Source: Bifidobacterium breve
GTDB taxonomy: Bacteria; Actinomycetota; Thermoleophilia; Solirubrobacterales; Solirubrobacteraceae
NCBI GenBank assembly: GCA_945881845.1
Contig: CAMCVN010000006.1
Coordinates: 1 to 64,000 of the forward strand
Reading direction: 5' to 3'
Length of the DNA: 64,000 nucleotides
Positions 5,005 through 20,566 of the stretch are shown in pieces (within the stretch, counting starts at the first letter, position 1; each line of letters starts with the position of its first letter). The notes beneath the pieces were generated by a model, which did not search any database, had not been told where the DNA came from, and saw nothing but the letters and a program-made list of their open reading frames with translations. A program made the translations under genes and the position numbers.

Positions 5005-7173
5005 CTAGCTGAGAGCCTGAGCTGAAGGCAGCCGCTCGAGCGTATCCGTCGTCACGTCGACGCCGAGACTGGCTGCGCAGCTTGGGCAGAAGTGCTCGCG
5101 CGTTACAACGCGCGGCTCCTCAAGACGATCGCGAACGATCATCTCCAGCTGTGCATAGCGCTCAGCAATTGGCGTCTCAACGCAGACAGCCCCGTCACGC
5201 CAGTTGCCATCCGCCTCAGCGAGGCTCTCGTCGCAGGATGCGCATGACCAGCGGCCATCGCTTCGGTGCGTTGAGATGCCGATCAGTGGCGGCGCTTTCA
5301 TCTCTTTGCTCGGCTTGCTGCCGATGCGATCATGGAGAACCTGTTCGCGGCGGGCCGCAGTCGCCTTCTCATCGAGAGCCTGTGAACCGTCGACAACGAC
5401 GCCGTAGATCTGGTTGGCGTGTTCTTCGGTTACGTAGCCGGCGATGATGTCGTCGACAACCTTCGATGGCTCGCGCAGTAGCGGATCGCCGAGTCCGGCG
5501 CCGCCACCAGAGGTCGCAACGAAGACGTCGCCGCGGCCGAGGTTGATATGCGTGATTTTCGAGCGAACAGCCTCTGCGTTGCCCTCAAGCCGTTCCCTCG
5601 TCGGGAGCACACCCGCGTCAATCAGGGCACCAACGTTTGAATCACGAACCGGATGGAACGAACCTCCCGAACCCGGGTAGCCACCGCCAACACCATGCGG
5701 CGGAACTTGAGCGCAAGCGTTGAAACATGGGCCAGCCATGCTGTCGCTGTAATGAATTGCGTAGGCCTGATCTAGCGACTGGCCACCGCGCATCTGCCCT
5801 GGACCGCCCGAGTTTGCGACCAAGCGGCGCCAGAGGAAGAGAACTGGATCGGCGCCCTCGTGGTTCTCGATATCCGGGATCCCGCCGCCGGTCGTGCAGG
5901 TCAAACCGTAAGCGTCCTGACCATCGTTGATTGTCTGCCCGCCACCACCTGAGCCAATCGCGTTGTCGGGGTAGAAGACGACCGAGATGCCATCGTGCTG
6001 GTTGGTGCCAAACAGCGCGTTGCCGGGGAAGCCATCCTGATGCTGACCAGCCAGCCGGCTGCGCAGGACCGGATCATCGCTGAGCGCCAATGCTTGGCAG
6101 ATTACGTCCTTGGCAAGCTTGCAGGCGCGCATTCCAACCTCGGAGTGCGCGTTGCTGACAGGAGCCGGCGGCACGGAGTTCACGATCGTTCCTGGCTCGC
6201 CGAGCTCAACTGTGATCGGCCGCCAAAGCCCGCCGTTGACGGGGAGGTCGCCGTATACGAGCGTCGTCATCAGCCCGGTCATCGCCTGACCGAACATCGG
6301 GCCTTCCGTCGAGTTGACAAAGGCGTCGATCTGCGGCACACCGGAGTAGGTGAAGCGGAGGTCGGTGCCGTCGACTTCGAGGCTGCAGCGCAGCTCGAGT
6401 AGGCGGTCCGGCCCTTCATGGCCGTCGAACTCATTCCAGTCGACCGCCTCGTAGACGCCGTCAGGCATCTTGCCGATCCGGTCGCGCAGTACCTGCTCGC
6501 TGAGGTCCTTGTTGATCTCGCAGTAGGCCTGATGCGCCTCAAGGCCAAACTCGTCGATGATCTGATGGAGCTTGGCCGTCGCCGTGTTGTTCGAGGCGAC
6601 CATCGAGCGGATGTCGTTCAGGACAGCACCTGGAGCGCGAACGTTTGCTGCGATGTAATTCTCCCACTCGGGATCGATAATTCCGTCGCGGATGATCTTG
6701 ATTGGAGGAAAGCGCATTCCCTCCTGCCAAACGTCGTGAGCGCCGGGAGCGTAGCCTGAGATTCCCACGCCTCCGACGTCCAGAACGTGCATGTTGGCGA
6801 ACGACCAGCCGAGGTGCTCGCCGTTGTAGAAGGTCGGCATGATGATCGAAACGTCGCCCTGGTGCATCGCTCCGCCGGTGTGCGGATCGTTGACGATCCA
6901 ACCGTCGCCCGGGTTCAGCTCTGCGCCTTCACGAACGAGTTCGGCGATCACCTGCGTGCCGATCAACGACGAACCGACATGGAAGAGGACGTAGGACGAG
7001 AAGCCGAGGTGTTCCGGCGTGAGATCCATAAGGCAGGTCGAGAAGTCCTTCGACTCCGTAACGATCGGCGAACCAGAGGTCCGCACGAGCGTAATTGCCA
7101 TCTCGTCTGTCAGGTTTTGTAGCGCCTTCCGATGTACTTCGGCGGCGATGACGTCGTAATCAGCAGTGCTCAT
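5005..7173 (-). CDS. Hydantoinase B/acetone-carboxylase alpha-type protein with C-terminal zinc domain
   Basis: 722 residues. Residues 1-600 form a HyuB/oxoprolinase-B domain (DVIAAEVHRKALQNLTDEMA near the start; VNDPHTGGAMHQGD; GGGGQTINDGQ; TSGGGAGLGDPLLREP near the end). About 100 extra residues carry paired cysteines, C644-x-x-C647 and C696-x-x-C699, resembling the separate zinc-bearing gamma subunit of acetone/acetophenone carboxylases. Family enzymes use ATP, through the partner A subunit, to carboxylate ketones or open cyclic amides. It is 8 bases downstream of the matching HyuA gene with an AGGAG ribosome site, so the two form one enzyme. The substrate is unknown; hydantoinase, oxoprolinase or lactamase activity are alternatives to ketone carboxylation. 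Confidence 0.88.
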   Translation of the reverse strand: MSTADYDVIAAEVHRKALQNLTDEMAITLVRTSGSPIVTESKDFSTCLMDLTPEHLGFSSYVLFHVGSSLIGTQVIAELVREGAELNPGDGWIVNDPHTGGAMHQGDVSIIMPTFYNGEHLGWSFANMHVLDVGGVGISGYAPGAHDVWQEGMRFPPIKIIRDGIIDPEWENYIAANVRAPGAVLNDIRSMVASNNTATAKLHQIIDEFGLEAHQAYCEINKDLSEQVLRDRIGKMPDGVYEAVDWNEFDGHEGPDRLLELRCSLEVDGTDLRFTYSGVPQIDAFVNSTEGPMFGQAMTGLMTTLVYGDLPVNGGLWRPITVELGEPGTIVNSVPPAPVSNAHSEVGMRACKLAKDVICQALALSDDPVLRSRLAGQHQDGFPGNALFGTNQHDGISVVFYPDNAIGSGGGGQTINDGQDAYGLTCTTGGGIPDIENHEGADPVLFLWRRLVANSGGPGQMRGGQSLDQAYAIHYSDSMAGPCFNACAQVPPHGVGGGYPGSGGSFHPVRDSNVGALIDAGVLPTRERLEGNAEAVRSKITHINLGRGDVFVATSGGGAGLGDPLLREPSKVVDDIIAGYVTEEHANQIYGVVVDGSQALDEKATAARREQVLHDRIGSKPSKEMKAPPLIGISTHRSDGRWSCASCDESLAEADGNWRDGAVCVETPIAERYAQLEMIVRDRLEEPRVVTREHFCPSCAASLGVDVTTDTLERLPSAQALS

Positions 7174-7181
7174 GTCTCTCC

Positions 7182-9275
7182 TCAGCGCGTTAGGACGTAG
7201 TTCATGTATTCATCGCGCTCCGCCGTGGTTCCGGGGGGCACGTAAATCGTTGTGTCGACCGCATCGATGATCGCCGGTCCTTCGACACGGCTGCCTACGG
7301 TCATGCTTGCATCGTCAATGACCGGGATCTCTTCCCATCGACGCTCGGTCGGAAGGAATACACGGCGCATTTCGCGCGTTAGATCGCTCGACGCTGGCTC
7401 GGCTGATGCCTTGCCAAAGTCCGGACGATCCTGCTGGCCGGTAACCGTGACGCTGTAGTTGATCAGCGAGGCCGGAACACCCTTCCAGGCAGTTCCCTCT
7501 CCGTAAGTGCGCTCATACATGGCGAGGAAGTTGTCAAAGATCTCCTCCGCATCTTCAGCTTTCAGCTCCCGTGCTGGCATCGCCACCGTCAGCTCGTAAG
7601 CCTGACCGTGGAAGCGAATGTCAGCGGTGCGTTGAACGTCAATCTGATCGCGCGTGAAGCCTTCCGTTTCCATCTGCTGGATTGCTTCTTCAACCATCCG
7701 GTCGGCGATCTCGTTGACGCGTACGACGCCTTCTGGCTTCGAAAGATCCCAGCCAACGCCTTGATCGTTACGAAGGACGTAGTCCGCCGAGAGCAGGCCG
7801 AGAGCGCAGAAGACAGAACTGTTCTGCGGGATAACGATCGTCTCGATACCGAGCCGTTCCGCTATCTGCGAAGCGAACAGCGGAAGTGTTCCGCCGTAGG
7901 CTAGGAAGAGGAACTCGCGCGGATCATGGCCCTTGCCGACGCTTACTTCGCGGACGGCGTTGGCCATGTTGACAACGACCAGATCGTGCATCGATGCTGC
8001 AGCGTCCTCTGTCGACCAGCCGAAACGCTCGCCGAACGTGTCGTCAAGGACACCCTTGGAGAGTTCAGGCTGAAGTTGGACACGGCCACCGAGGTAGCGC
8101 TCTGGGTCGATGAAACCAAGCGTGACCATTGCGTCTGTGACGGTCGGCTCTTCTCCGCCGCGTCCCAAGGCCGCAGGCCCAGGAGTTGAGCCGGCGCTCT
8201 GCGGCCCAACCTGTGGAACGCCTCGCTCACTGACCCAACCGATCGAACCGCCGCCAGCGCCGACCGAAACAACGTCGACGATGTTGACGCCGGTCATGAA
8301 GGGGCCGAGCTCAAGGTTCTTGTCGATGTGAATCTCGTTGTCGACAACGATTCCCGTGTCGAAGCTGGTGCCGCCCATGTCTCCGAGCAGCACGCGGGTC
8401 TTACCCATCCGCTTGGCGAGCTCGTTTGAACCGATCGCGCCGGCAGCTGGGCCTGACCCAAGCAGACCGAGGGGGTACTGGCGGGCCTTCTCGAGGCTGA
8501 TTCCGCCGCCGAGCCCTTGGAAGAACGCGAGTCCGCCCTTGAGTCCAGCGGTGCGCAGCTTCTCGTTGAGCGAGGTCAGGTAGACCTCGGCGCGGTCCTG
8601 AACGAACGAGTTCAGGATCGCTGTCGTCCAGCGCCGAGTCTCGCCCTCAACCGGGAAGACACGATGCGACGGCGTGATGAAGATGTCGGGGTAGATCTCC
8701 TTGATCGCCTTCTCGGCAGCGAGCTCGTGCTCGGTGTTGGCGTGGCTCCATAGGAAACAGATCGAAAGCGCATCAACGCCAACCTCCTCAACGAGGTAGC
8801 GCGCCTGTGCCTTGACCTGCTCAAGATCGAGCGGAACAAGGACGGTCCCTGACCAGTCGATCCGCTCGTCGATCTCAACGATCGCGCGGCGATCAACTAG
8901 GTCCGGGACGTTGAGCTGAAGGTGATCGTCAATCTCGGTTGTACGCGGGCCGCCGGCGAGGCGGAAGGCATCGCGGAACCCGTTCGTGACGAGCACACCA
9001 ACACGCGAGCCGCGAAGCTGCGTGATCGTGTTGGTGACAACGGTCGTGCCGTTGATGAAAAGCTTGGTCCTGTCGAGCAGCTCGTCCATGCTGAGCTCGT
9101 AGTTCACGGCGGCAACCTCAACCGCCTCGAGCACGCCGCGACTGAAGTCGTCGTAGGTTGTCAGCGCCTTGCCGCGCTCAACACGGCCGTCGTAGACGAC
9201 CGAAACGTCTGTGTGGGTTCCTCCCACATCGACGCCAATAAATGCTTGTTTTCCGTTTGCCTTCGTGTCAGTCAT
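7182..9275 (-). CDS. Hydantoinase A/acetone-carboxylase beta-type ATPase subunit
   Basis: 697 residues, the normal HyuA length. ATP-binding (actin-like fold) signatures are clear: GVDVGGTHTDVSVVYDG near residue 15, LGDMGGTSFDTGIV mid-protein, then SVGAGGGSIGWV, VGPQSAGSTPGPAALGRGG and EPTVTDA. The C-terminus carries the usual beta-rich Hydant_A_C region. The subunit phosphorylates substrate and/or bicarbonate for the HyuB-type partner encoded 8 bases downstream. The start has a good AGGAG site (AGGAGaaaaATG) and overlaps the stop of the upstream acyl-CoA ligase by 8 bases, so ligase, A and B are translationally linked. That echoes acetophenone carboxylase, whose beta-keto acid product is activated by a dedicated CoA ligase. 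Confidence 0.9.
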   Translation of the reverse strand: MTDTKANGKQAFIGVDVGGTHTDVSVVYDGRVERGKALTTYDDFSRGVLEAVEVAAVNYELSMDELLDRTKLFINGTTVVTNTITQLRGSRVGVLVTNGFRDAFRLAGGPRTTEIDDHLQLNVPDLVDRRAIVEIDERIDWSGTVLVPLDLEQVKAQARYLVEEVGVDALSICFLWSHANTEHELAAEKAIKEIYPDIFITPSHRVFPVEGETRRWTTAILNSFVQDRAEVYLTSLNEKLRTAGLKGGLAFFQGLGGGISLEKARQYPLGLLGSGPAAGAIGSNELAKRMGKTRVLLGDMGGTSFDTGIVVDNEIHIDKNLELGPFMTGVNIVDVVSVGAGGGSIGWVSERGVPQVGPQSAGSTPGPAALGRGGEEPTVTDAMVTLGFIDPERYLGGRVQLQPELSKGVLDDTFGERFGWSTEDAAASMHDLVVVNMANAVREVSVGKGHDPREFLFLAYGGTLPLFASQIAERLGIETIVIPQNSSVFCALGLLSADYVLRNDQGVGWDLSKPEGVVRVNEIADRMVEEAIQQMETEGFTRDQIDVQRTADIRFHGQAYELTVAMPARELKAEDAEEIFDNFLAMYERTYGEGTAWKGVPASLINYSVTVTGQQDRPDFGKASAEPASSDLTREMRRVFLPTERRWEEIPVIDDASMTVGSRVEGPAIIDAVDTTIYVPPGTTAERDEYMNYVLTR

Positions 9276-10986
9276 TTTTCTCCTGGGCCGAACTCGGCGG
9301 ATCTAGATGCTGACTTTGGCGTGCAGCGCCATCGCCGACAACTGTCCGATGTGACAGTCGCTCGGTCATCGACGAAAGCTCCAGCGACGGCTCCTGATTC
9401 GAGAACTGTTCTCGCAGCAGGAACTTCTTTAGCTTCCCGCTAGGCGTGCGCGGAAGTTCATCAATCACCTTGACCGACCTCGGCTTCTTGTAGCTAGCGA
9501 GGCGCTCAGTGCAGTAGTCGATAATCGCTCGCTCATCGACGATCGATCCTGGCGCGGCTTCGACTACGGCGCAGACGATCTCTCCCCATTTCTCGTCAGG
9601 GAGCCCGACGACGGCAGCATCTGAAACAGTCGCGTGCTCGCGCAGGACGGCCTCGATCTCGGATGGGAAGATGTTCATTCCGCCGCTGATGATCATGTCC
9701 CCCTTGCGGCCGGAGATGTACAGATAGCCCTCGTCGTCAAAGCGGCCCATGTCACCTGTGTGCAGCCAGCCATCGACGATCATCTCGTCGGTCATCTCAG
9801 GGTCATCCCAGTAACCCGCCGTGACCGAGGGAGCGCGCACAAGGATCTCCCCATCCCCACCCGGCGCTACCTCGCTGCCATCTAACGCCTCAAGTCGAAT
9901 CTCAGCGTGCATCGAGGCCTTGCCAGCCGATCCCGGTTTGCGGTGCGCGTCCTGCGGCGGGACGAAGGTCACCGTTCCGCCACCCTCGGTGAGCCCATAG
10001 ACCTGAATAAAGTCGGTTGTAGGGAAGACCTCCTGTGCACGACTCGTAGTCGCGGCCGAGACCGGCTGCCCCCCGCACATGATCATCTTCAGAGCACTGA
10101 GATCGAAGTCCTCGAGGTTCGGCAGGCGGAAGATGTCGTAGAGCATCGTTGGCACCCAAAGAACGTGGGTTATCTGATGATCAGCCACATAACGCAGTGT
10201 TTCCCCGGCGTCGAAGCCGCTTGACCGTTCGATATGGACTGTCCCGCCCTGTTGGAGGATGCCCCACGTAAAGTCGTGGCGACCGCCGATGTAATAGAGG
10301 TCGATAACGACGTGGGTGGAACTCTGCGGCCCGAGCTGGAAATCAACTATCTGCTGGATCGAGTTCCAGAGCACCGAGCCGTTCGTCCAGACGACGCCTT
10401 TCGGCTGACCGGTAGTGCCGGATGTAAAGATGATCTCGTGCGGGTCATCGAGCTGACCCGTTCTAGTAGGACGCTCGTTCGAGGAGGATCTCAACAGCTC
10501 CTCGTACGAAAGATCTGCAACTCCGTCGTCGATCGTGATGATCGTCCGCAGTTCGGGCACCTCGCCGGACCGTCGTAGCGCGAGGATCGTAGGTAGAAAA
10601 CGCTCGTCAACAAAGATCGCCTTGGCTTGCGAACGGCGGAGCAGATTCGCCAGCTCGCCCTCGCGCAGGCGCCAGTTAAGCGGCACCATGATCGCTCGCG
10701 CCGCTGCGATCCCTACCTCGATCTCGATGAACTCAAGGCGGTTGACGGCGAGGATTGCAACACGATCCAGCTCCTCCAGTCCCAGACCAACAAGGCCGTT
10801 CGCAATGCGCCGCGAGGCGTCCCTCAGCTCGCCGTAGGTGCGCGAGCTGCCTTCGAAGACGACTCCTGGGCTATCGAGATCCAGGCCGGCACGCTCGAAC
10901 AGGTATGGCATTGAGAGGAAGTCCCAGCGCTGCGAAGCAGACTGGCCCACAAACTTGTAGTTCCGGTTCGGTTCGGGACGTTCCAC
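9268..10986 (-). CDS. AMP-binding acyl-CoA ligase (ANL superfamily)
   Basis: 572 residues. ANL core motifs are intact: the P-loop IIFTSGTTGQPKGVV, VYGLTEGGG (A5), the A7 motif GWLHTGDMGRFDDEGYLYISGRKGDMIISGG, and the A10 lysine in TPSGKLKKFLLRE. After that an unusual tail of about 35 polar residues follows. It makes an acyl-CoA from a free acid via an acyl-AMP. It lies directly upstream of, and overlaps, the hydantoinase A gene and follows the LvaA-like kinase gene on the same strand, so it probably activates the acid made by one of these steps. The acid substrate cannot be read from the sequence. Confidence 0.9.
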   Translation of the reverse strand: MERPEPNRNYKFVGQSASQRWDFLSMPYLFERAGLDLDSPGVVFEGSSRTYGELRDASRRIANGLVGLGLEELDRVAILAVNRLEFIEIEVGIAAARAIMVPLNWRLREGELANLLRRSQAKAIFVDERFLPTILALRRSGEVPELRTIITIDDGVADLSYEELLRSSSNERPTRTGQLDDPHEIIFTSGTTGQPKGVVWTNGSVLWNSIQQIVDFQLGPQSSTHVVIDLYYIGGRHDFTWGILQQGGTVHIERSSGFDAGETLRYVADHQITHVLWVPTMLYDIFRLPNLEDFDLSALKMIMCGGQPVSAATTSRAQEVFPTTDFIQVYGLTEGGGTVTFVPPQDAHRKPGSAGKASMHAEIRLEALDGSEVAPGGDGEILVRAPSVTAGYWDDPEMTDEMIVDGWLHTGDMGRFDDEGYLYISGRKGDMIISGGMNIFPSEIEAVLREHATVSDAAVVGLPDEKWGEIVCAVVEAAPGSIVDERAIIDYCTERLASYKKPRSVKVIDELPRTPSGKLKKFLLREQFSNQEPSLELSSMTERLSHRTVVGDGAARQSQHLDPPSSAQEKND

Positions 10987-11070
10987 GCGACGCTGTCTCC
11001 ATTCAGGCGGACGTCACCAGAATGACACCGCCGAGGCAGGCAGGGCACTGGCGAATCTGCCAGTGAATTC

Positions 11071-12102
11071 TCACCAGTCCATGATGCCGGCGAGATCTTG
11101 CCGTATGCCAGGCAGCACGAATCGGGTCCAGGCGAGACGAATGTCGGTCGTTCGATGCTCGGAATAAATGCGCAGCCCTGTCGTCATGATCGCGACCAGC
11201 ATCAGCGCACCAACGGCGGAGAAGGTCCTGACGACTTCAGGATCAAGCGGTCGGCCTGTCAGCTCGCTGTAGCGCTCGGCAAACCACTCGTGGTCGGCGA
11301 CAGCGTTCAGCAATTCCGAGCCCGGAGTCGTGAACTTACCCCCGTGATAATTGAGTGACATGTAGCCAATGTCGAAGCGCGGATCTCCGACATGGGAGAG
11401 TTCCCAGTCAAGGATCGCGCTGATCCTGCCGTCCTCGATCAAGCAGTTCCCGATCCGGTAATCACCGTGGACCAGGGCGGGCTCAACGGGGTCTGGCTCG
11501 TGCGCCCGCACCCAGCGGTAACTCTCATCGATCACCGGGTCGCGAACGATGCGATTCTCCTCGTACACACCCTGCCAGTGGTCGACGGTCTCGAGGAAGC
11601 TCCTCGGCGTGGCGGCCTCGGCCGCGCGGCCGGCATCGATCTGGTGAATCGCAGCGAGGTACTTAACGTGATCCTCGGCAATGCCTCGGTCGCCGTCCCA
11701 GTCAGCTTGGAGCTCAGCTCTATCACGACCGCGCCAAACGTTGATCGCCTTGCCGGGAAGGCGATCCATCACGAAGAAGGGACCGTCAAACGGCGTGTCC
11801 TCGTCCGCAACAAAGCCGTGAACGGCCGGGGTCGGCAGCGATTCCGGGACGAGCAACTCGAATACGCGAAACTCCTGGCCGAGGTCGGTATCCAATGTCG
11901 AGCCCTGAGGGCGAGCCCGCACGACGCACGAGAGTTGCTCGTCGCCGTCTTTGATCTCAGCAATGTAGGAGTGACGCGACCAGCCACCTTGCAACTGCTC
12001 CAAGTAGGTCACTTGCGCGTCGTCGCTGACCGATCCAACCGCACGCATGCAAGCGAGCAGCGCCTTGGCCTTGGGTTCGTCGATGTCGTGATGGTCGGCC
12101 AT
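11071..12102 (-). CDS. LvaA-like phosphotransferase (probable 4-hydroxyacyl-CoA kinase)
   Basis: 343 residues with an aminoglycoside-phosphotransferase (APH) kinase fold. GGWSRHSYIAEI replaces the P-loop, HGDYRIGN is the catalytic loop and DWELSHVGDPRFD the metal-binding DFG-like motif. This clade includes LvaA of the Pseudomonas putida levulinate pathway and the kinase domain of human ACAD10/ACAD11, which phosphorylate the 4-hydroxyl of 4-hydroxyacyl-CoAs. Three bases upstream is a small LvaB-like gene, and the same run encodes an ACAD10/11-type dehydrogenase. That makes a 4-hydroxyacyl-CoA kinase role more likely than antibiotic resistance. A paralogue with the same partner is at 60213-61229. 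Confidence 0.82.
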   Translation of the reverse strand: MADHHDIDEPKAKALLACMRAVGSVSDDAQVTYLEQLQGGWSRHSYIAEIKDGDEQLSCVVRARPQGSTLDTDLGQEFRVFELLVPESLPTPAVHGFVADEDTPFDGPFFVMDRLPGKAINVWRGRDRAELQADWDGDRGIAEDHVKYLAAIHQIDAGRAAEAATPRSFLETVDHWQGVYEENRIVRDPVIDESYRWVRAHEPDPVEPALVHGDYRIGNCLIEDGRISAILDWELSHVGDPRFDIGYMSLNYHGGKFTTPGSELLNAVADHEWFAERYSELTGRPLDPEVVRTFSAVGALMLVAIMTTGLRIYSEHRTTDIRLAWTRFVLPGIRQDLAGIMDW

Positions 12103-12105
12103 CGG

Positions 12106-12483
12106 CTATTCGGGAATCGCCGCTAGCGCAGCGACCTCGCGGTCAGCCATCTCACGCAGGATGCGATGGATCTCAGGTCGGCGCGGATCATCTGCTGGCA
12201 TCTGCTCGAAGAGGAGGGACAGCTGCTCGCCAACAGCGATGCTGCTACCGGCCTCAGCCATCTGCGCTTCTTGATCTCCGAGCACCGGCCCCAGCTCGCC
12301 CTTAATCCAAGTCAGCATCGCCGGAGCTGCGACGTTCTCGGCAGCCAGCAGCCGCGCGACGCTATAGGCCGACAGAAGCTGGCTGCGCTCATAGTCCTCA
12401 AGCGCCGCGCCACGATCGGCAGCAGCTCGCAAGACGCTGCCGATGCCAATCAGAAGCTGGTCGGTCCTCAGAGCGTTAAACAC
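12106..12483 (-). CDS. LvaB-like small partner of the kinase (DUF6285-like)
   Basis: About 125 residues, mostly helical. It has no enzyme motif but a conserved block, EDYERSQLLSAYSVARLLAAE. A second family member at 61226-61672 has DDWESGQLLSVYSATRHLAAE, and each sits directly upstream of an APH-type kinase. In P. putida, LvaB is a small protein of unknown structure required with LvaA for 4-hydroxyvaleryl-CoA kinase activity; I infer the same role. I choose the GTG at 12483 because from there (VFNALRTDQ...) the protein aligns without gaps to the start of its paralogue (MWNPLSPSE...). The reading frame extends to a TTG at 12495. The DUF6285 assignment is from memory and unverified. Confidence 0.68.
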   Translation of the reverse strand: MFNALRTDQLLIGIGSVLRAAADRGAALEDYERSQLLSAYSVARLLAAENVAAPAMLTWIKGELGPVLGDQEAQMAEAGSSIAVGEQLSLLFEQMPADDPRRPEIHRILREMADREVAALAAIPE

Positions 12484-12531
12484 CCCACCAATCAAACTCC
12501 CTGGGGCTGCAGCTCGCCACTGTCAGATGCG

Positions 12532-12930
12532 CTAGGCCGGCGCCAAGCGCCGTGGCAACTTAACCAGCGCTTGCAAGACTTCGCGATCATCGACCGTGCA
12601 GCGTGCCATCACAACTACGACGGCCGCAAACTGGAGCACTTCAACGGCGCTGCAGACGACCGTCGAACCGATCGGAACCGGCCCGCGGAACGCAACGTCG
12701 ACCGTCACTCCCGCGGGCAACCCTTCGCAGCCCAGCCACGTCGCGACCGCTTCATATACGGCCTGGAGCGCGATCGGGCCGTGCGCGACGACAACACCGA
12801 AAGGGCCGGCGGCAGCGTAATCGGGATCTACGTGCAGCGGGTTGTAGTCGCCGGATACCTCTGCGTACATCGAAATTGCGGCCCCGTCTACGAGGTGGCG
12901 AACCTCAGGGAATGGCTTGAGCGTGGTCAT
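12532..12930 (-). CDS. MaoC-family hotdog hydratase, catalytic half
   Basis: 132 residues forming one hotdog domain. It has the (R)-hydratase-2 motif SGDYNPLHVDPDYA followed by VAHGPIALQAVY, with the catalytic Asp and His present. The enzyme would hydrate an enoyl-CoA to a 3-hydroxyacyl-CoA or act in reverse. It overlaps the upstream FAS1-like half by 4 bases, and the two almost certainly form a heterodimer equal to a double-hotdog hydratase. A paralogous pair is at 19727-20553. The last codons happen to encode a strong GC hairpin. It sits between the LLM oxidoreductase and the LvaB-like gene. Confidence 0.87.
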   Translation of the reverse strand: MTTLKPFPEVRHLVDGAAISMYAEVSGDYNPLHVDPDYAAAGPFGVVVAHGPIALQAVYEAVATWLGCEGLPAGVTVDVAFRGPVPIGSTVVCSAVEVLQFAAVVVVMARCTVDDREVLQALVKLPRRLAPA

Positions 12931-13346
12931 GCGTCTCGAATCGTCCAGTCGACCAATGCCGCGACGACTCCCTCGTTCTCGATTGTGAATCGAAAAGTTG
13001 TGTAAAGCCTGCCGTCACGTTCGTCCTTGTCGGATACGACTACGGCGACGTCGAGCGTGCACCCCGACGGTATCTCTGCTTGGACGTCGAAGCTCTGCCC
13101 CAAGAGCACTCCGCCTGGAGGGATCCCTGACAGTGCTCGGCGGAGGACGCGCAGCGTAACCAACGGCAGAACCCCGGCAGGGGCAACCGCACCGGCCCGC
13201 TCGGTGCCAAGCTCGCCGCGCAGGACGCTGCTGACCGCGGCGCTCAACGGCTCAACGAACGGTCCAAACTCCTGCCCGGCATGAAGGTCTTGGTAGCGCG
13301 TCTGCGAAAGCAGCGGAACCCCATCGAGCGTGTCGCCCTGCATCAC
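12927..13346 (-). CDS. FAS1-like/MaoC N-terminal hotdog protein, non-catalytic half
   Basis: 139 residues with a hotdog fold of the FAS1-like dehydratase type (YQDLHAGQEFGPFVEPLSAA near the start, then LGQSFDVQAEIPSG). The D-x-x-N-P-x-H hydratase motif is missing, so it should serve as the structural or substrate-binding half for the catalytic partner encoded 4 bases overlapping downstream. Its closest relative in the window is 19727-20152, with the same partner arrangement. The start codon overlaps the stop of the LLM gene in an ATGA, which shows tight operon coupling. Confidence 0.78.
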   Translation of the reverse strand: MMQGDTLDGVPLLSQTRYQDLHAGQEFGPFVEPLSAAVSSVLRGELGTERAGAVAPAGVLPLVTLRVLRRALSGIPPGGVLLGQSFDVQAEIPSGCTLDVAVVVSDKDERDGRLYTTFRFTIENEGVVAALVDWTIRDA

Positions 13347-14365
13347 TCCGCCCCCGGGGCGCAGGCCTCGATCAGACCAAGCGCATTTTCGCGGACTCGT
13401 TCAGGATCGAGTCGGAAACTGGGCGTATAGAGGATCACGTGGTCGAGCAGACCGTCGTAGCGGCGCAGCGCTGAACGCACATCCGAAGGTGTCCCAACAA
13501 CAGCCAGCTGATCGATCATCTCGTCGGGGACCGCCGCAACCATCGCATCTAGGTCGCCGCGTCCAAACGCTTCACGAATAGCCTCGCCAGCAGCCGCGAA
13601 CCCAGTCTTCTCAAGAATCGGGGCGTAGGTCTTCGCCGACGCGTAGAAACCGATCTGCGCAGCGACTTCCCTGCGTGCCTGCTCAGCATCCTCATGCACG
13701 GCAGCGAATACGAGGCTGGCTACAGCGACCTCGCTCGCGTCGCGACCCGCATGGGCGGCGCCACGTTCGATCGCTGGAAGAACGACATCTTCGAGGTAGC
13801 CGGTGGTGAAAAGCGTATGACCCAAGAGCCCGTCCGCGACGCGTCCGGCAACCTCGATCATGCGTGGATTGACTCCCGCGGTGTAGATCGGAATCCGCTC
13901 CCGCAGCGGCGGCAGCAAGTCCCCCGTTGGGGCGATGTGGAGCCTGTAGAACCGGCCATCATGGTCGATCGGCCCTTCGTGCAGTCGCCACAGCCTCCGT
14001 ACTAGAACAACCAGCTCTTCCATCCGAACCGCGGGCGCGTCCGGGTCCTGCCCGTGCCAGTCGGAGATCATCCGACGCGTCCCGTTGCCTAGCCCAAGTA
14101 CGAAACGACCATCCGAAATCTCGTCAAGATCCCGGGCCTCAGCCGCAAGCGTTAGTGGGGTGCGCCCAACGCCGTAGGCGATCGCCGTTCCAACCCGGCA
14201 GCGCTCTGTCCGCGCCGCAAACTCGGCGATCGTGATCGTCGCCGAGCGGCTGTAGAGCTCCGGCGCCCAGGCACTACCGAGACCGGCGATGTCAGCGGCG
14301 ACGGCAACGTCGCTCATCGATCGGACCGAAGTCCCCTGCGTCTCGATGCCGATAGTTGGGACCAT
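13343..14365 (-). CDS. LLM class F420/flavin-dependent oxidoreductase
   Basis: 340 residues. The TIM-barrel luciferase-like features are AARTERCRVGTAIAYGVGRTP, DEISDGRFVLGLGNGTRRMISDWHG and PIYTAGVNPRMIEVAGRVADGLLGHTLFT. The last is typical of F420-dependent members. I place the start at the ATG at 14365 (MVPTIGIETQG), the normal N-terminal beta strand. An open frame continues upstream into the crotonase gene with a low-complexity, Arg-rich translation that is not real. It is closely related to 59188-60219 (shared GNGTRRMISDWHG and YTAGVNPRMIE), which sits beside the second LvaAB pair. It could be a reductase, dehydrogenase or a type II Baeyer-Villiger-like oxygenase. Confidence 0.87.
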   Translation of the reverse strand: MVPTIGIETQGTSVRSMSDVAVAADIAGLGSAWAPELYSRSATITIAEFAARTERCRVGTAIAYGVGRTPLTLAAEARDLDEISDGRFVLGLGNGTRRMISDWHGQDPDAPAVRMEELVVLVRRLWRLHEGPIDHDGRFYRLHIAPTGDLLPPLRERIPIYTAGVNPRMIEVAGRVADGLLGHTLFTTGYLEDVVLPAIERGAAHAGRDASEVAVASLVFAAVHEDAEQARREVAAQIGFYASAKTYAPILEKTGFAAAGEAIREAFGRGDLDAMVAAVPDEMIDQLAVVGTPSDVRSALRRYDGLLDHVILYTPSFRLDPERVRENALGLIEACAPGAE

Positions 14366-14369
14366 CGGC

Positions 14370-15179
14370 CTAGCCGCTCGTGAACTTCGGTGCGCGCTTT
14401 TCGCGGAACGCTTCGAGCGCTTCGCGGAAGTCGTCGCCGCGAGTCGCCAGAGTCTGCCCGCGGTTCTCAACCTCAACCGCCTGGGTCAACGATCCGGCGT
14501 CGACGTTGGCGTTCAGCACGCGCTTCGAAAGCATCACGCCAAACGGCGTGTTCGAGGCGATCTGCGCAGCCATCTCGAACGCTTCTTCGAGCAGCTGGTC
14601 GGCCGCGACGACACGATTGACCAGACCGATTGCCGCTGCCTCCTCGGCATCGACAAACCGCCCTGTGAACATGATCTCGGCGGCGTGCCCGAGACCGACG
14701 ACGCGCGGCAGCGACCATGAAACGCCTACGTCACCAGCGGAAAGACCAATCCGAACAAAGGCTGCGTTGAAACGGGCTTCGGTCGAAGCGATGCGGATGT
14801 CTGCAGCCAGCGCAAGTCCGAGCCCACCTCCGGCTGCAGCTCCGTTGACCGCAGCGATCACCGGCTGTGGCAGCTCGTGGAGCTTGACGAATGCGCCTGC
14901 CCAATGCTGCTGACCGAGCATCATCTCGAGCGCCGTCATGTCGGGAAGCGTCATCGCTTCGTCGAGATCCAGGCCAGAACAGAATCCTTTTCCGGTCCCC
15001 GTGATGACGACTGCCCGAGCCGACGAATCGACCATCAGCTTGCCGGTCAGGTCGTGAATCTCGTCGAACATCTCGAACGTAATCGCGTTCATCTGCTCAG
15101 GACGGTTGAGTGTGATTAGGACGACCCCGTCGCGCGGGCGTTCGACCAGCAATGTGCGGTAATCGTTCACCGCTACCAC
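14370..15179 (-). CDS. Crotonase-family protein (enoyl-CoA hydratase/isomerase)
   Basis: 269 residues. The CoA-binding/oxyanion motifs are GKGFCSGLDL and NGAAAGGGLGLALAADIRIAS. The two glutamates of classical hydratases are not at their usual places: GGGLGLA has Gly in place of the first Glu, and the second region reads AAFVRIGLSAGDVGVSWSLPR. That sequence is common in actinobacterial EchA-type proteins of isomerase or unknown activity. It starts at a GTG that overlaps the stop of the upstream dehydrogenase. Co-transcription with an ACAD10/11-type enzyme and LvaAB suggests a step on the 4-hydroxyacyl-CoA route, but which reaction it catalyses is open. Confidence 0.88.
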   Translation of the reverse strand: MVAVNDYRTLLVERPRDGVVLITLNRPEQMNAITFEMFDEIHDLTGKLMVDSSARAVVITGTGKGFCSGLDLDEAMTLPDMTALEMMLGQQHWAGAFVKLHELPQPVIAAVNGAAAGGGLGLALAADIRIASTEARFNAAFVRIGLSAGDVGVSWSLPRVVGLGHAAEIMFTGRFVDAEEAAAIGLVNRVVAADQLLEEAFEMAAQIASNTPFGVMLSKRVLNANVDAGSLTQAVEVENRGQTLATRGDDFREALEAFREKRAPKFTSG

Positions 15180-16402
15180 GCGACCATTGAAGTGCTCGGT
15201 TCAACTTTGCCGAGTTCGATCCGAGCGATCACCTGTTTGTGGACCTCGTCGGCTCCGTCGCCGATTCGAAGCATCCGGTTGTACCGCGCCATTCCAGCCA
15301 GCGGAGTGTCCTCTGAGACCCCTGCGCCACCCCAAACCTGCATCGCGCGATCGACAACGTTGAGGGCCATCGTCGGTACGACCAGCTTCGTAATCGAGAG
15401 TTCCTCGCGAGCCTCGCGGTTCCCGACCTGATCGAGCTTCCACGCTGCGTACGCAGTCACCAAACGAGCTTGGTCGATCTCAGCCCTCGACGTCGCGATG
15501 AAGTCCTGAACGAACTGTCGCTCCGAGAGCATCGTGCCGAACATCTCGCGCGACTTGGCGCGCTGGCACATCAACTCAAGCGCACGCTCGGCCACGCCGA
15601 TGCAGCGCATGCAGTGATGGATCCGCCCTGGCCCGAGGCGGTCCTGAGCGATCTTGAATCCGCTCTGACGGGCACCGAGCGTGCAAAGCTCAGCCGGCAC
15701 GCGGCAATCGTCATAGGAGATCTCCCAGTGCCCAGGCCCTGCTGTGTGACCATGGTTGGAGAGTGGCCGAACGAGATTGAACCCGGGGGTATCTGTCGGG
15801 ACCAGGAGCATTGTCGCGCGCGAATGCCTTGGAGCATCGGGGTCGGTGACCGCCATCACAATTGCGACTGACGCACCAAGAGCGTTCGTCGTCCACCACT
15901 TGCGGCCATTGATGACCCAGTCAGAGCCGTCGAGTACGGCGCTGCAGGCAAGCCCCGTCGGATCGGAACCGGCCGTATCGGGCTCGGTCATCGAATAGCA
16001 GCTGCGAATCTCCCCCTCGAGCAGCGGATAGAGCCACCGGTCACGCTGATCGTCGGTTGCGTGCTCGACCAGAATCTCCATGTTCCCAGAGTCCGGAGGC
16101 TGGCAGTTAAAGGCGTACGGAGCGACGATCGTCGCGCGGCCCATCTCCTCGGAGAGAGCGCCGTATTCGACATTGGTCAGACCTGGTCCGAACTCCTCGT
16201 TAGGCAGAAAGAGGTTCCAGAGACCCTCCGCTTTCGCCTTCGCCCTGAGCTCAACAAGAATCTCGGGAAAGGCTGTCTGCTGATCGACCTCTCGGTCAAG
16301 CGCCGCCTCGGCCTCACGTTCGTTCGGGTAGATGTGCTCGTCCATGAAGGCCCGAACGCGCTCAAGAAGCTCCTTGCAGCGATCACTCTGTTCAAAATCC
16401 AT
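15173..16402 (-). CDS. ACAD10/ACAD11-type acyl-CoA dehydrogenase (LvaC-like)
   Basis: 409 residues. It matches the dehydrogenase half of ACAD10/11: FNCQPPDSGNMEIL, SCYSMTEPDTAGSDPT, INGRKWWT, and then RLGPGRIHHCMRCIGVAERALELMCQRA and QVWGGAGVSEDTPLAGMARYNRMLRIGDGADEVH. The catalytic Glu of ordinary ACADs is replaced by Asp (IGDG), as I recall for this clade. In animals this domain is fused to an APH kinase and processes 4-phospho-acyl-CoAs. In P. putida the separate LvaC has that role. Here the kinase is a separate gene in the same run (11071-12102). It overlaps the crotonase gene by 7 bases. Confidence 0.9.
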   Translation of the reverse strand: MDFEQSDRCKELLERVRAFMDEHIYPNEREAEAALDREVDQQTAFPEILVELRAKAKAEGLWNLFLPNEEFGPGLTNVEYGALSEEMGRATIVAPYAFNCQPPDSGNMEILVEHATDDQRDRWLYPLLEGEIRSCYSMTEPDTAGSDPTGLACSAVLDGSDWVINGRKWWTTNALGASVAIVMAVTDPDAPRHSRATMLLVPTDTPGFNLVRPLSNHGHTAGPGHWEISYDDCRVPAELCTLGARQSGFKIAQDRLGPGRIHHCMRCIGVAERALELMCQRAKSREMFGTMLSERQFVQDFIATSRAEIDQARLVTAYAAWKLDQVGNREAREELSITKLVVPTMALNVVDRAMQVWGGAGVSEDTPLAGMARYNRMLRIGDGADEVHKQVIARIELGKVEPSTSMVAW

Positions 16403-16494
16403 CGTCCTACCTCCGCTCGCGGTTGCGCCCGGCTGAGAGCGCCAATATCAACCAGCCTACGTCGCTCGAGCGGCCACCGGCATTGGCGGAATGG

Positions 16495-17481
16495 CTAGTC
16501 ACGGTCAAAGGTCACAACGATCTTGCCCGTCAGCTGCCGCGACTCGATCATCTCGTGGGCTCGGGCAACCTCAGCAGCCGGCATCACAGCCAGCTCAGGG
16601 CGCAGGGCGCCGCTTAGCAGAGCCTGCTGCACCTGCTCAACGGCCAGCGCGGGTTCTCGCGGGTCCTGCTCGGCGACGCGGGCGACAATGAAGCCGCAGA
16701 CCGACTGATCCCGCGGCATCAGCGACCTGACATCGAGCATCGCAGGCTGCTGGCTGGCTGACCCAACAACGATGTAGCGCCCTCCATACGCCAGAGCCCT
16801 AAGGCTTGGCGTGAAGAGATCGCCGCCGACGCCATCGATAATCACATCGACGCCGCGCCCCTCGGTCAGTTCGCGAACTTCGGCGGTCAACGTCTCGGGG
16901 TTCGCAAGGAGGGTCTTCGAAGCGCCGTGACCGGTGGCGATCTCGAGCTTCTCGGGAGTTGACGCAGACGCGATCACCTCAACGCCGAGTCCGGCGCAGA
17001 GCTGGACGCAGAGCGAACCGAGCCCGCCGGCCGCTGCGTGAATCAGCACGGTTTCGCCTTCCTTGAAGTGGCTGTAGCGATGGACTGCGTACCAAGCCGT
17101 GACACCCTGAGAGAAGAGACCGGCGGCAAGCGCGTCGCTGATCCCTTCGAGCACCGGATAGACGTTCGCCGCCGGAGCGACGACCATGTCCGCGTAGCCG
17201 CCGCCGTTCTCCATGAAGACGATCACGCGCGAGCCGACCTCCGGGCCGTCGGGCGGCCCTTCAACAACTCGTCCCGATACTTCAAAGCCTGGGATGAAGC
17301 TGAGTTCCTGATCCCGCCGGTACTCGCCCCGGCGGACCATCGTGTCGGCGAAGTTGACACCGATCGCGTCAACCGCGACGAGCACCTCGCCGGGTCCAGG
17401 CCGCGGGCACGGGGCCTCTTCCCAGACCATCACGTCGGGGGCGCCAAATTCGGTCAGCGTCACGAGCTTGCGAGTCTCCAT
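16495..17481 (-). CDS. Quinone-oxidoreductase-type MDR protein (zinc-free)
   Basis: About 328 residues. It is a medium-chain reductase with the NADPH motif AAAGGLGSLCVQLCAGLG, the quinone-reductase N-terminus (VTLTEFGAPDVMVWEEAPCPRPGPGEVLV) and GVNFADTMVRRGEY. It lacks the cysteine-rich zinc loop of alcohol dehydrogenases. Such enzymes reduce enones, quinones or enoyl thioesters. I place the start at the ATG at 17481, which has GGAG just before it. An upstream in-frame extension would overlap the divergent ligase start. It is the first gene of the minus-strand run and is separated from the next by 92 bases, so it may or may not be in the same transcript. Confidence 0.87.
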   Translation of the reverse strand: METRKLVTLTEFGAPDVMVWEEAPCPRPGPGEVLVAVDAIGVNFADTMVRRGEYRRDQELSFIPGFEVSGRVVEGPPDGPEVGSRVIVFMENGGGYADMVVAPAANVYPVLEGISDALAAGLFSQGVTAWYAVHRYSHFKEGETVLIHAAAGGLGSLCVQLCAGLGVEVIASASTPEKLEIATGHGASKTLLANPETLTAEVRELTEGRGVDVIIDGVGGDLFTPSLRALAYGGRYIVVGSASQQPAMLDVRSLMPRDQSVCGFIVARVAEQDPREPALAVEQVQQALLSGALRPELAVMPAAEVARAHEMIESRQLTGKIVVTFDRD

Positions 17482-17556
17482 GTACTCCAGCATTGCGGCC
17501 AACGACGACGGCGCTAACTGGCACTTGCGACAGGCGCCCTGCAAGGGGGGTCGCCA

Positions 17557-17572
17557 TAGCGTCCCGAGCATG
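17557..17572 (+). promoter_or_regulatory. Candidate leaderless -10 box of the ligase gene
   Basis: TAGCGT lies 13 to 8 bases before the ATG at 17570. It fits the TANNNT -10 element expected when an actinobacterial transcript starts at the start codon. No purine-rich ribosome site is at the proper distance. No clear -35 box is seen. Confidence 0.3.
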
Positions 17573-19225
17573 GACGTCACCAATCTTCATGGCCGCCGAG
17601 CAACCGAACGATGGGAGCGTCTAAGTGTCGGAGATCTCTTCGAGCGAATGACTTGGAGCTCACCGGACAAGGAGGCGATCGTCGCCTGGGAAGGCGCCTT
17701 CGCCGACCCGTTTCTACAGCGGGTCACCTACAGCGAGGCCGACCGGCTGGCCAACCAAATCGCCAATGCGCTGCTCGCCCGCGGACTAACGGCAGGCGAC
17801 CGAGTAGCGATGTTCTGCGAGAACTCGGTCGAGGCGTACATCTTCAAGTTCGGTGTCGCCAAGGCCGGACTGACCGTCGTGCCGATTAATCCGATGCTGG
17901 CGCCTGACGTGATCGCTTACCTGCTCGAACAAGCGACACCGCGGTTCGCCATCGTCGACGCCGAGCTGTGGCCGAAGGCCGAGGAAGGGTTCGCACTTCA
18001 GCAGGTGGCCGCCGACGTCACGATCGAGATCGGTGGCGGCACCGTTGCTGGAAGCATCAGCTTCAGTGATTTCGTGCGCGATGCAGCGACTACCGAGCCT
18101 GACGTCGAGATCCACGGCGACGACGTCTGGGAGATCATCTTCACGTCCGGAACGACGGCGATGCCCAAAGGGGCAATGATCTCGCACACCTACAGTTACT
18201 TGGGCGGCTACGCGTTCGCGCTAACGCTGACGAGGAACCTCCAAATTGAGAACGACCTGCGGCTGATCAGCTTCCTTCCTCTGATCTTTCACATCGCTGA
18301 TCAGATCTTCAGCTTCCCCGCGTTTCTTGCCGGCGGAACTTTGATCATCGGTCGGGGGCCTGACCCCAGCAAGATTGCGGCCGCGATCACAGCAGAACGC
18401 GCGACCGCGCTGTGGGGCGGATCGCCGGCGATGCTGACCGAACTGGTCGAGATCCTCGACGGGGAGTCGGGGCCTTATGACGTAACCAGCCTGACTACGA
18501 CGATCTACGGCTGGACCGCAGCTCACCCCGACCTGATCGCCGCACTGAAGCGCCACTGCGGGGAGCAACTGGTGGCCTGCGAGATCCTCGGGCAGACGGA
18601 GGCGATCGCGTGCCACCGGTTCTGGCCTGACAAGTGGCCCGAGATCTTTCTCAGCACCGCGCCTGAGCTCAACTACGTAGGCATCCCAAGCCCAATGGTC
18701 GCGGGCGACGTAGTCGACGAGGGCGGTCGATCATTGCGCGACCGGCCGGGTGAGATCGGCGAAGTCGTCTACCGCTCGCCGGTCTTGACCGCCGGCTACT
18801 ACCTCGACGAGGAGGGGACGCGCGAGGCATTCCGGGGCGGATGGTTCCACTCCGGCGACCTCTGCATGTACGACGAGAACGGCCTGCGGATCATGGTTGA
18901 CCGATCGAAGGACATCGTCAAATCCGGCGGCGAGAACGTCTCAAGCCTGCGCGTCGAGGCTGTTCTTCATCAGTACCCCGGCATCACAAAGGCTGCCGTC
19001 GTCGGCCTACCGCACGAACGTTGGGGCGAAGCCGTCGCAGCGTTCGTGATCCCTGCCGAAGGCGCTGAGCTTGACCCCGAGGAGATAATCCTCTTCTGCC
19101 GCGAGCGCCTTGCTGGCTTTGAGACGCCGAAACGGGTCGTGCTTGTCGGCGAGCTGCCAGTAACGGTCGGCAACAAGGTTCTGAAATACAAGCTTCGCGC
19201 GACTCACGCCGCGCTATTCGCATAG
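17570..19225 (+). CDS. AMP-binding acyl-CoA ligase
   Basis: 551 residues. ANL motifs are IIFTSGTTAMPKGAMISH (P-loop), EILGQTEAIA (A5), GWFHSGDLCMYDENGLRIMVDRSKDIVKSGGENVSS (A7-A8) and the A10 region LPVTVGNKVLKYKLR, where the usual T-x-x-G-K is slightly altered to TVGNK. It should activate a carboxylic acid to its CoA ester. The reading frame is open further upstream, but that part lies over the divergent MDR gene and translates to a low-complexity peptide. The ATG at 17570 is therefore preferred. It is alone on the plus strand and converges on a small membrane-protein gene. Confidence 0.9.
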   Translation: MDVTNLHGRRATERWERLSVGDLFERMTWSSPDKEAIVAWEGAFADPFLQRVTYSEADRLANQIANALLARGLTAGDRVAMFCENSVEAYIFKFGVAKAGLTVVPINPMLAPDVIAYLLEQATPRFAIVDAELWPKAEEGFALQQVAADVTIEIGGGTVAGSISFSDFVRDAATTEPDVEIHGDDVWEIIFTSGTTAMPKGAMISHTYSYLGGYAFALTLTRNLQIENDLRLISFLPLIFHIADQIFSFPAFLAGGTLIIGRGPDPSKIAAAITAERATALWGGSPAMLTELVEILDGESGPYDVTSLTTTIYGWTAAHPDLIAALKRHCGEQLVACEILGQTEAIACHRFWPDKWPEIFLSTAPELNYVGIPSPMVAGDVVDEGGRSLRDRPGEIGEVVYRSPVLTAGYYLDEEGTREAFRGGWFHSGDLCMYDENGLRIMVDRSKDIVKSGGENVSSLRVEAVLHQYPGITKAAVVGLPHERWGEAVAAFVIPAEGAELDPEEIILFCRERLAGFETPKRVVLVGELPVTVGNKVLKYKLRATHAALFA

Positions 19226-19228
19226 CCG

Positions 19229-19639
19229 CTAGCCGGAAGCGGTCAGAATCACTACGCCAGCGATGACCAGCAGAACGCCGGCCACGCGAACCAACGTCAG
19301 TTGTTCCGACAGAACCGCCGCCGCAAGCAACAGAGTCACGGCCGGATAGGCGGCGGTGATCGGGACAACAGTGCTCGCCTTGCCGACGGTGAGAGCGAGG
19401 TAGAGAGCTATCAGGCTGCTGATCGCGATTCCGGCTGAAGCGAGCGCCCAGCCGCTGCCAGATGTGAACTTCAGTTCCGTCTGGCCGCTCAGAAGCAGGA
19501 AGCCGGCAACGAGGATGTAGCCGAGGCCGGTCCAGAGCACGAGGTCCTGCCAGACGAGCGTCCGCAGGGCGAGCTTGCCTGTGATTCCAAGCGCGCCTAC
19601 AGCCACCACGTAGTAAAGAGTCGGAGCGAGCCAGGCCAT
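19229..19639 (-). CDS. Small EamA/DMT-type membrane protein (4 TM)
   Basis: 136 residues, strongly hydrophobic, with four predicted membrane segments. These are about residues 4-24, 31-50, 64-86 and 92-133, the last containing two short helices. PITAAYPAVTLLLAAAVLSEQLTLVRVAGVLLVIAGVVIL is a standard EamA ending. It is one EamA repeat rather than the usual two, so it probably works as a dimer, like small multidrug resistance proteins or bacterial half-DMT proteins. The substrate is unknown. It converges with the ligase gene, 3 bases between stops, and is divergent from the hotdog pair. Confidence 0.75.
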   Translation of the reverse strand: MAWLAPTLYYVVAVGALGITGKLALRTLVWQDLVLWTGLGYILVAGFLLLSGQTELKFTSGSGWALASAGIAISSLIALYLALTVGKASTVVPITAAYPAVTLLLAAAVLSEQLTLVRVAGVLLVIAGVVILTASG

Positions 19640-20553: not shown

Positions 20554-20566
20554 TTGCCGCGCTGCG

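What the first reader, a model, noticed from the sequence alone, without database searches (positions are those of the whole stretch)
5005..17481. Two paralogous catabolic superclusters with the same unusual parts list
Locus 1 (5005-17481) and locus 2 (46285-62606) each contain an F420/LLM oxidoreductase, a crotonase lacking the standard glutamates, an LvaB-like small protein followed by an LvaA-like kinase, an AMP-binding ligase, and hydantoinase A, B and zinc-gamma functions. Locus 1 adds a hotdog hydratase pair, an ACAD10/11-type enzyme and an MDR. Locus 2 adds a lactonase-like protein, a phosphatase and an SDR. Hydantoinase/carboxylase enzymes and LvaAB kinases are not known to me to act in one pathway. 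Repetition of the set suggests a conserved, undescribed route: ATP-dependent activation of a ketone, lactone or lactam, CoA ligation, then removal of a gamma-hydroxyl by phosphorylation and elimination.
Basis: partly seen in the sequence, partly recalled or inferred. Interest (0 to 1): 0.85.

Follow-up and report, generated by a model that had tools for sequence, protein, structure and literature searches.

The report
Conserved 58-kb ketone/hydroxy-acid catabolic island
The two look-alike gene sets are the two ends of one large degradation gene island, conserved in several soil actinobacteria, that combines a carbon-dioxide-fixing ketone enzyme with a phosphorylate-and-remove-the-hydroxyl step not reported together in the papers searched; its substrate is unknown.

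Summary
The parts list is real. Locus 1 (5005-17583) and locus 2 (46285-62606) both hold an LLM oxidoreductase, a crotonase without the hydratase glutamates, an LvaB-like helical protein, an LvaA-like kinase, an AMP-forming ligase and HyuA/HyuB with a zinc gamma domain. They are not two free-standing clusters. About 50 of 57 window genes lie together in one stretch of another genome of the same family (G314), so both loci belong to one ~58-kb island. The kinase tree puts the locus-1/locus-2 duplication before the split of these genera. Haloarchaea built a similar set from non-orthologous Hyu, LLM and ACAD genes. The converse fails: most zinc-type HyuB loci have no kinase. The locus-1 ACAD carries every LvaC/ACAD11 signature residue, so phosphorylation-elimination of a hydroxyacyl substrate is likely there; locus 2 has no such ACAD. 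The Hyu sets look like ketone carboxylases more than lactamases, but this is unproven. How the modules connect, and the substrate, are inference. New variant of known kinds; interest 0.55.

The parts
2233..4874 (-). GAF sensor histidine kinase + LuxR-type response regulator, conserved next to locus 1 in G314
   Evidence: Pfam; G314 orthologs 59-84% identity
5005..7173 (-). HyuB1z: hydantoinase B-type subunit with fused zinc gamma domain (2x CxxC)
   Evidence: PF02538 + PF08882; D/H/D/H metal ligands present
7182..9275 (-). HyuA1: ASKHA kinase-type alpha subunit
   Evidence: PF01968/PF05378; ATP motifs and ERID fingerprint
9268..10986 (-). ACS1: AMP-forming acyl-CoA ligase
   Evidence: PF00501
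11071..12102 (-). LvaA1: LvaA/ACAD11-like APH kinase
   Evidence: PF01636; matches the ACAD11 kinase domain; catalytic residues kept
12106..12495 (-). LvaB1: small LvaB-like/DUF6285-like partner (likely start at the GTG of VFNAL)
   Evidence: 31% to LvaB2; hhalign to DUF6285 77.6%
12532..13346 (-). MaoC + second hotdog-like protein (hydratase pair)
   Evidence: PF01575 for the first; second resembles the one at 19727; pair conserved in G314
13343..14476 (-). LLM1: LLM oxidoreductase, closest to F420-dependent families
   Evidence: PF00296; TIGR03617/TIGR04024/Mer below cut-off
14370..15179 (-). ECH1: crotonase lacking both hydratase glutamates
   Evidence: PF00378; alignment
15173..16402 (-). 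LvaC1: ACAD10/11-LvaC-type acyl-CoA dehydrogenase homologue
   Evidence: ACAD11 367 bits against 154 for the next ACAD; signature residues
16495..17583 (-). MDR1: quinone-oxidoreductase-like MDR
   Evidence: conserved in G314
17342..45312 (.). Core of the island between the loci: ligases, hotdog pair, IpdAB-like CoA transferase pair, CT/BCCP/BC/AtuA acyl-CoA carboxylase block, PrpD, E2/E1b/E1a, SDRs, ACAD, MDR, ribose-type ABC transporter, two TetR
   Evidence: Pfam; syntenic in G314 and partly in G354 (L156)
46285..48606 (-). HyuB2z: beta subunit with C-terminal 2x CxxC domain
48609..50714 (-). HyuA2: alpha subunit
50711..51481 (-). SDR2
51486..55520 (-). HyuAB2: fused alpha-beta carboxylase/hydrolase
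   Evidence: 83% ortholog in G314, 82% in G015
55533..55925 (-). gamma2: stand-alone zinc gamma subunit
   Evidence: PF08882
55984..57597 (-). ACS2: AMP-forming ligase
57529..58341 (+). Histidine phosphatase (RHG motif), conserved with locus 2 in G314
   Evidence: PF00300; 54% ortholog
58197..59180 (+). SMP-30/gluconolactonase-like protein; not found in G314
   Evidence: PF08450; absent list
59188..60273 (-). LLM2
   Evidence: PF00296; Mer is the best solved relative
60213..61229 (-). LvaA2 kinase
   Evidence: PF01636
61226..61672 (-). LvaB2 small helical partner
61713..62606 (-). ECH2: crotonase lacking both hydratase glutamates
   Evidence: PF00378

Best explanation
The two loci are the ends of one conserved ~58-kb catabolic island of Solirubrobacteraceae, with two diverged copies of a shared module. 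In each arm, HyuA uses ATP to phosphorylate a ketone enol and bicarbonate, HyuB joins them at its metal site with the help of the zinc gamma domain, and the neighbouring ligase turns the keto acid into a CoA thioester (acetone/acetophenone-carboxylase logic). In locus 1 a second sub-route works like levulinate catabolism: the LLM enzyme (probably F420-dependent) takes the LvaD role by reducing a keto group to a hydroxyl, LvaA1 with its LvaB1 partner phosphorylates that hydroxyl, LvaC1 eliminates the phosphate to give an enoyl-CoA, and the glutamate-less crotonase and hotdog pair shift or hydrate the double bond for beta-oxidation. Locus 2 does the same kinase step without its own LvaC, perhaps sharing LvaC1 or using the histidine phosphatase. 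Shown: parts, signature residues, conservation, co-occurrence. Inferred: carboxylase rather than lactamase activity, the LLM role, the order of steps and the substrate.
For: Identity of parts. One island: about 50 of 57 window genes syntenic in a single-contig 5.2-Mb genome of the same family (G314), with locus-1 order LvaC-ECH-LLM-LvaB-LvaA-ACS-HyuA-HyuBz kept at 69-83% identity (48% for LvaB); the middle of the island is also next to locus 1 in G354 (L156); locus-2 module in G015. Paralogy older than the genera: locus-1 and locus-2 kinases form separate clades with orthologs in several genomes. Co-occurrence: Hyu near 15/23 subfamily kinase loci against 1/73 (HyuA) and 0/73 (HyuB) controls. 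Similar set assembled from non-orthologous genes in haloarchaea. LvaC residues R626/H634/R637/D753 (PMC12440821) all conserved in LvaC1. Carboxylase features from PMC5214803: gamma subunit with four cysteines, alpha ATP motifs, alpha-beta-gamma order in locus 1; adjacent ligase as in the Apc operon. F420 ligase in the genome. LvaB-like resembles DUF6285, which sits next to this kinase type in 33/73 control loci and between kinase and ACAD in L029, L034 and L039; predicted helix layouts agree.
Against: Most zinc-type HyuB loci in the class have no kinase nearby, so carboxylation does not require it. Locus 2 has no LvaC. Haloarchaeal ACADs are ordinary, not LvaC-type. ACAD11's CoA-contact Arg86 is absent in all 32 subfamily kinases and Arg176 in the Solirubrobacterales copies, so the kinase substrate may not be a CoA thioester. 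HyuB1 scores nearer caprolactamase than carboxylases. I found no thiolase among the annotated window genes for a beta-ketoacyl-CoA. No expression or biochemical data.
Confidence: 0.5

Rival explanations
1. The island is a dense collection of catabolic modules acting on different substrates. The Hyu/ligase modules and the kinase/LvaC modules share a location and regulator but not a pathway.
For: Zinc-type HyuB usually occurs without the kinase; 8 of 23 subfamily kinase loci have no Hyu within ~12 kb; the island also holds an AtuA/carboxylase block, an E1/E2 set and an IpdAB-like pair; five ligases suggest several entry points.
Against: Contiguous same-strand gene order LvaA-ACS-HyuA-HyuBz kept across genera; association re-formed with non-orthologous Hyu genes in haloarchaea and with a more distant kinase, LvaC and HyuBz in G246 (L124).
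Confidence: 0.27
2. The HyuA/HyuB proteins are ATP-dependent ring-opening hydrolases (lactamase/hydantoinase type). They open a cyclic amide or related ring to an acid that the ligase and the kinase/LvaC steps then degrade.
For: HyuA and HyuB1 score higher with caprolactamase than with carboxylase models; HyuA lengths (697-701 aa) match CapA.
Against: Zinc gamma domains, fused or separate, accompany all three Hyu sets, and PMC5214803 reports gamma absent from hydantoinases; HyuB2 scores higher with the acetophenone carboxylase delta model than with CapB; no transaminase or deaminase was annotated in the window.
Confidence: 0.18
3. The LLM enzymes are FMNH2-dependent monooxygenases that make lactones from ketones; the lactonase-like protein then gives the hydroxy acid that the kinase phosphorylates.
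For: LLM superfamily includes such enzymes (general knowledge); a gluconolactonase-like gene sits beside LLM2.
Against: Best family matches are F420-dependent and the genome encodes an F420 ligase; the lactonase-like gene is missing from the G314 island.
Confidence: 0.15

Closest known systems
Levulinate (Lva) pathway of Pseudomonas putida, LvaA-E
   Same: Kinase, small partner protein, LvaC-type ACAD with the unique active-site residues, acyl-CoA ligase
   Different: LLM oxidoreductase instead of the LvaD oxidoreductase; extra crotonase/hotdog genes; linked to Hyu carboxylase-like genes; kinase lacks the ACAD11 CoA-contact arginines
ACAD10/ACAD11 4-hydroxyacyl-CoA enzymes
   Same: Same kinase and ACAD domains; R626, H634, R637 and D753 equivalents kept in LvaC1
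   Different: Separate proteins; R86 and R176 equivalents missing in the window kinases
Acetophenone carboxylase (Apc) operon with benzoylacetate-CoA ligase
   Same: HyuA, HyuB and zinc gamma subunits next to an AMP-forming ligase
   Different: No alpha-prime subunit (all three HyuA carry the alpha fingerprint) and no epsilon subunit identified; gamma fused to HyuB in two sets
Acetone carboxylase (Acx)
   Same: alpha-beta-gamma order in locus 1; metal-binding residues of the HyuB-type subunit
   Different: Sequence closer to caprolactamase/hydantoinase in several subunits; gamma fused to HyuB
Levulinate cluster of Pseudomonas citronellolis LA18T
   Same: Kinase accompanied by a histidine phosphatase, as in locus 2
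   Different: No lvaB homologue found there; no carboxylase genes among those reported

Membership tests
LvaA/ACAD11-type kinase | Kinase catalytic residues (HGD....N, DWE) | tested here: met
   D220 and N225 equivalents in 32/32 subfamily members
LvaA/ACAD11-type kinase | CoA-contact arginines R86 and R176 of ACAD11 | tested here: not met
   R86 0/32; R176 only in haloarchaeal copies
LvaB | Homology of the small partner to the LvaB family | tested here: inconclusive
   hhalign to DUF6285 77.6% against <1% for shuffles; similar predicted helices; P. putida LvaB itself was not available
LvaC/ACAD10-11 | R626, H634, R637 and catalytic D753 | tested here: met
   LvaC1 alignment to ACAD11; no copy in locus 2
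Acx/Apc ketone carboxylase | gamma subunit with four cysteines (2x CxxC) | tested here: met
   gamma2, HyuB1 and HyuB2 C-termini
Acx/Apc ketone carboxylase | ATP motifs in alpha and D(E)/H/D/H metal ligands in beta | tested here: met
   also shared by hydrolases
Apc acetophenone carboxylase | alpha-prime subunit lacking the ERiD fingerprint | tested here: not met
   all three HyuA carry ERID
Acx/Apc ketone carboxylase | Curated equivalog score | tested here: not met
   best Apc scores 126-410 bits against cut-offs of 1250-1500
Caprolactamase/hydantoinase | Two subunits, no gamma | tested here: not met
   gamma present with all sets; CapA score 506-547 below 1000
F420-dependent LLM | F420 use | tested here: inconclusive
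   TIGR03617 209 and 202 bits, below the 278 cut-off; F420 ligase in genome
Enoyl-CoA hydratase (crotonase) | Two catalytic glutamates | tested here: not met
Ketone carboxylase and hydroxyacyl kinase | Catalytic activity | not testable with these tools
   needs purified proteins

The most novel reading that the evidence does not exclude
A new catabolic route in which biotin-independent ATP-driven ketone carboxylation and hydroxyl removal by phosphorylation-elimination act in sequence on one substrate, with an F420-dependent reductase in place of LvaD, assembled at least twice (Solirubrobacterales and haloarchaea).
Probability: 0.3. Interest if true: 0.78.

Novelty: new variant of a known kind. 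Interest (0 to 1): 0.55.

Why it matters
If the route is real, it joins two rare and costly ATP-consuming reactions in one pathway shared in outline by soil actinobacteria and haloarchaea, and gives a concrete gene set for finding its substrate. It also gives a testable role for LLM oxidoreductases, many of which have no known function, and ties the unnamed DUF6285 family to LvaA-type kinases.

Tried and rejected
Two independent superclusters: rejected, since the window is one syntenic island. Vertical sharing of the whole set with haloarchaea: rejected, because only the kinase and its partner are specifically related; Hyu, LLM, ACAD and ECH match other subfamilies better. The search for LvaA across the phylum beyond the class gave nothing. 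PDB fold search of LvaB2 gave no significant match. The Rand 2017 paper was not held, so P. putida LvaB could not be compared directly. Papers on DUF6285: none. NCBIfam models did not assign E1/E2 to acetoin dehydrogenase; they match pyruvate dehydrogenase components, only E1 beta above a (subfamily) cut-off. Regex tests for LvaC in haloarchaeal ACADs were negative; L147 and L148 carry a variant signature in an ACAD about 8 kb from the kinase.
Full report
WHAT IS THERE. The window is the first 64 kb of an 85.7-kb contig of a 2.07-Mb draft genome. Genomes of its family include MAGs labelled Conexibacter sp. and Solirubrobacterales (G354 = L006 and G346 = L007 by identical hit coordinates), so it is a Solirubrobacteraceae-type actinobacterium. 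Between the loci lie an AtuA/biotin-carboxylase/carboxyltransferase block, E1/E2 genes, a PrpD, an IpdAB-like pair, two TetR regulators and a ribose-type ABC transporter.

ONE ISLAND, NOT TWO CLUSTERS. I compared all 57 annotated window genes with a 115-kb stretch of G314, a single-contig 5.2-Mb genome of the same family. About 50 have an ortholog there, most at 60-90% identity and largely collinear. Not found in place: the first SDR, EamA, one SDR, ACAD39, the lactonase-like gene, and the SnoaL and B12-binding genes at the right edge. Both loci are there, with kinases 56 kb apart (49 kb in the window). In G354 the middle of the island continues beside locus 1 (L156). The 20 kb to the right of the window holds no further island genes. 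In the same genus only G015 (60% complete) carries the locus-2 kinase module and an 82% ortholog of the HyuAB fusion.

DUPLICATION IS OLD. A maximum-likelihood kinase tree separates a locus-1 clade (window, G314, G346, G354, G364) from a locus-2 clade (window, G015, G346, G314); the locus-2 clade is strongly supported, the locus-1 clade moderately. The haloarchaeal kinases form a third clade.

CO-OCCURRENCE. A scan of genome contigs with the kinase alignment gave 80 loci. Together with loci found through plasmids and relatives, 11 belong to the close subfamily; the other 73 kinases served as controls. LvaB-like: 9/11 against 0/73; HyuA 5/11 against 1/73; HyuB 5/11 against 0/73; LLM 8/11 against 8/73. 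With more loci from class-wide and haloarchaeal searches, Hyu genes lie within ~12 kb of 15 of 23 usable subfamily loci (8/10 Solirubrobacterales, 7/13 haloarchaea; my tally; Fisher test). Caveats: the loci are related and fall into about five arrangement types; the controls are mostly other phyla and some have shorter flanks; LLM, ligase and crotonase genes are common in such genomes, so only Hyu and LvaB carry weight. The subfamily is rare: 6/349 genomes of the class, 9/344 haloarchaea, and only this genome among 397 sampled from the phylum. The converse test fails: nearly all other zinc-type HyuB loci in the class have no such kinase nearby.

HALOARCHAEA. Natrinema and Haloterrigena plasmids carry ACAD-LvaB-LvaA-HyuA-HyuB-LLM in one direction, with acetone-carboxylase gamma (Haloterrigena), ligase, MDR and E1/E2 genes near. 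Their Hyu, LLM, ACAD and crotonase proteins are closer to unrelated control genes than to the island's. The association was therefore assembled separately, which argues for function, but the chemistry after the kinase may differ because their ACADs are not LvaC-type.

KINASE MODULE. LvaC1 matches ACAD11 at 367 bits against 154 for the next ACAD group. PMC12440821 names R626, H634, R637 and catalytic D753 as uniquely conserved in ACAD10/11 and LvaC; the alignment shows all four in LvaC1. The kinases keep all catalytic residues but lack ACAD11's CoA-contact R86 (0/32, against 33/78 controls); R176 is missing in the Solirubrobacterales copies. So phosphorylation of a hydroxyl is likely, but a CoA thioester substrate is not assured. 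The small partner is all-helical in prediction with a helix layout close to DUF6285; profile comparison gives 77.6% against at most 0.7% for 30 shuffles. DUF6285 sits within 4 kb of 33/73 control kinases. P. putida LvaB could not be tested.

HYU MODULE. All three HyuA carry both phosphate motifs, the adenosine motif and the ERID fingerprint that PMC5214803 gives for Apc-alpha rather than alpha-prime. All three HyuB keep the Asp/His/Asp/His metal ligands (PMC8453981). Two HyuB have a fused 2x CxxC domain and the fused HyuAB has a separate gamma gene. PMC5214803 reports gamma in ketone carboxylases and not in hydantoinases; locus 1 follows the acx gene order. Against this, HyuB1 and the HyuA proteins score higher with caprolactamase than with carboxylase models, and none reaches a curated cut-off. 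I favour carboxylase at roughly two to one.

LLM AND CROTONASE. LLM1/LLM2 are closest to F420 families and the genome encodes an F420 ligase. Some F420 LLM enzymes interconvert ketones and alcohols (Adf, general knowledge), which is why I place them in the LvaD role; this is inference. Both crotonases lack the two glutamates, consistent with isomerase-type relatives; PaaG is among the scored families.

LITERATURE. Searches of the open library found no description of this combination. P. citronellolis has a kinase/histidine-phosphatase levulinate cluster (PMC6692424), which resembles the phosphatase of locus 2.

VERDICT. The statement that the modules form one route remains a hypothesis with no substrate.

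Noticed in passing
window 24030-30205: AtuA + biotin carboxylase + BCCP + carboxyltransferase + crotonase block, an Atu/Liu-like acyl-CoA carboxylase set conserved in G314 and G354.
   Followed up: partly
window 32248-35212: E1a/E1b/E2 genes; the E2 is 236 aa with only the catalytic domain matched and no lipoyl domain. E1/E2 genes also neighbour the haloarchaeal cluster.
   Followed up: partly
window 19727-20553: Second hotdog/MaoC pair resembling the pair inside locus 1.
   Followed up: no
window 20567-22263: IpdAB-like CoA-transferase-family pair, a family known for ring-opening hydrolases in steroid degradation (general knowledge).
   Followed up: no
L149 (G563:C2:409900-421898): A second copy of the haloarchaeal cluster with many frame breaks, close to the intact copy's arrangement; looks like a decayed or badly sequenced duplicate at a contig end.
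   Followed up: no
L152 / G314:C1:2378728-2383148: HyuA2 and HyuB2 orthologs each appear in two reading-frame pieces, possibly frameshifts or sequencing errors.
   Followed up: no
L097 (Mycolicibacterium chubuense NBB4 plasmid): An LLM 55% identical to LLM2 sits with thiolase, MaoC genes, P450 and AtuA-type carboxylase genes but no LvaA/Hyu annotated; small M. abscessus plasmids also carry the LLM.
   Followed up: partly
control loci L012-L084: DUF6285 lies within 4 kb of 33 of 73 LvaA-like kinases, and between kinase and ACAD in L029, L034 and L039, suggesting it is the usual LvaB-type partner.
   Followed up: partly
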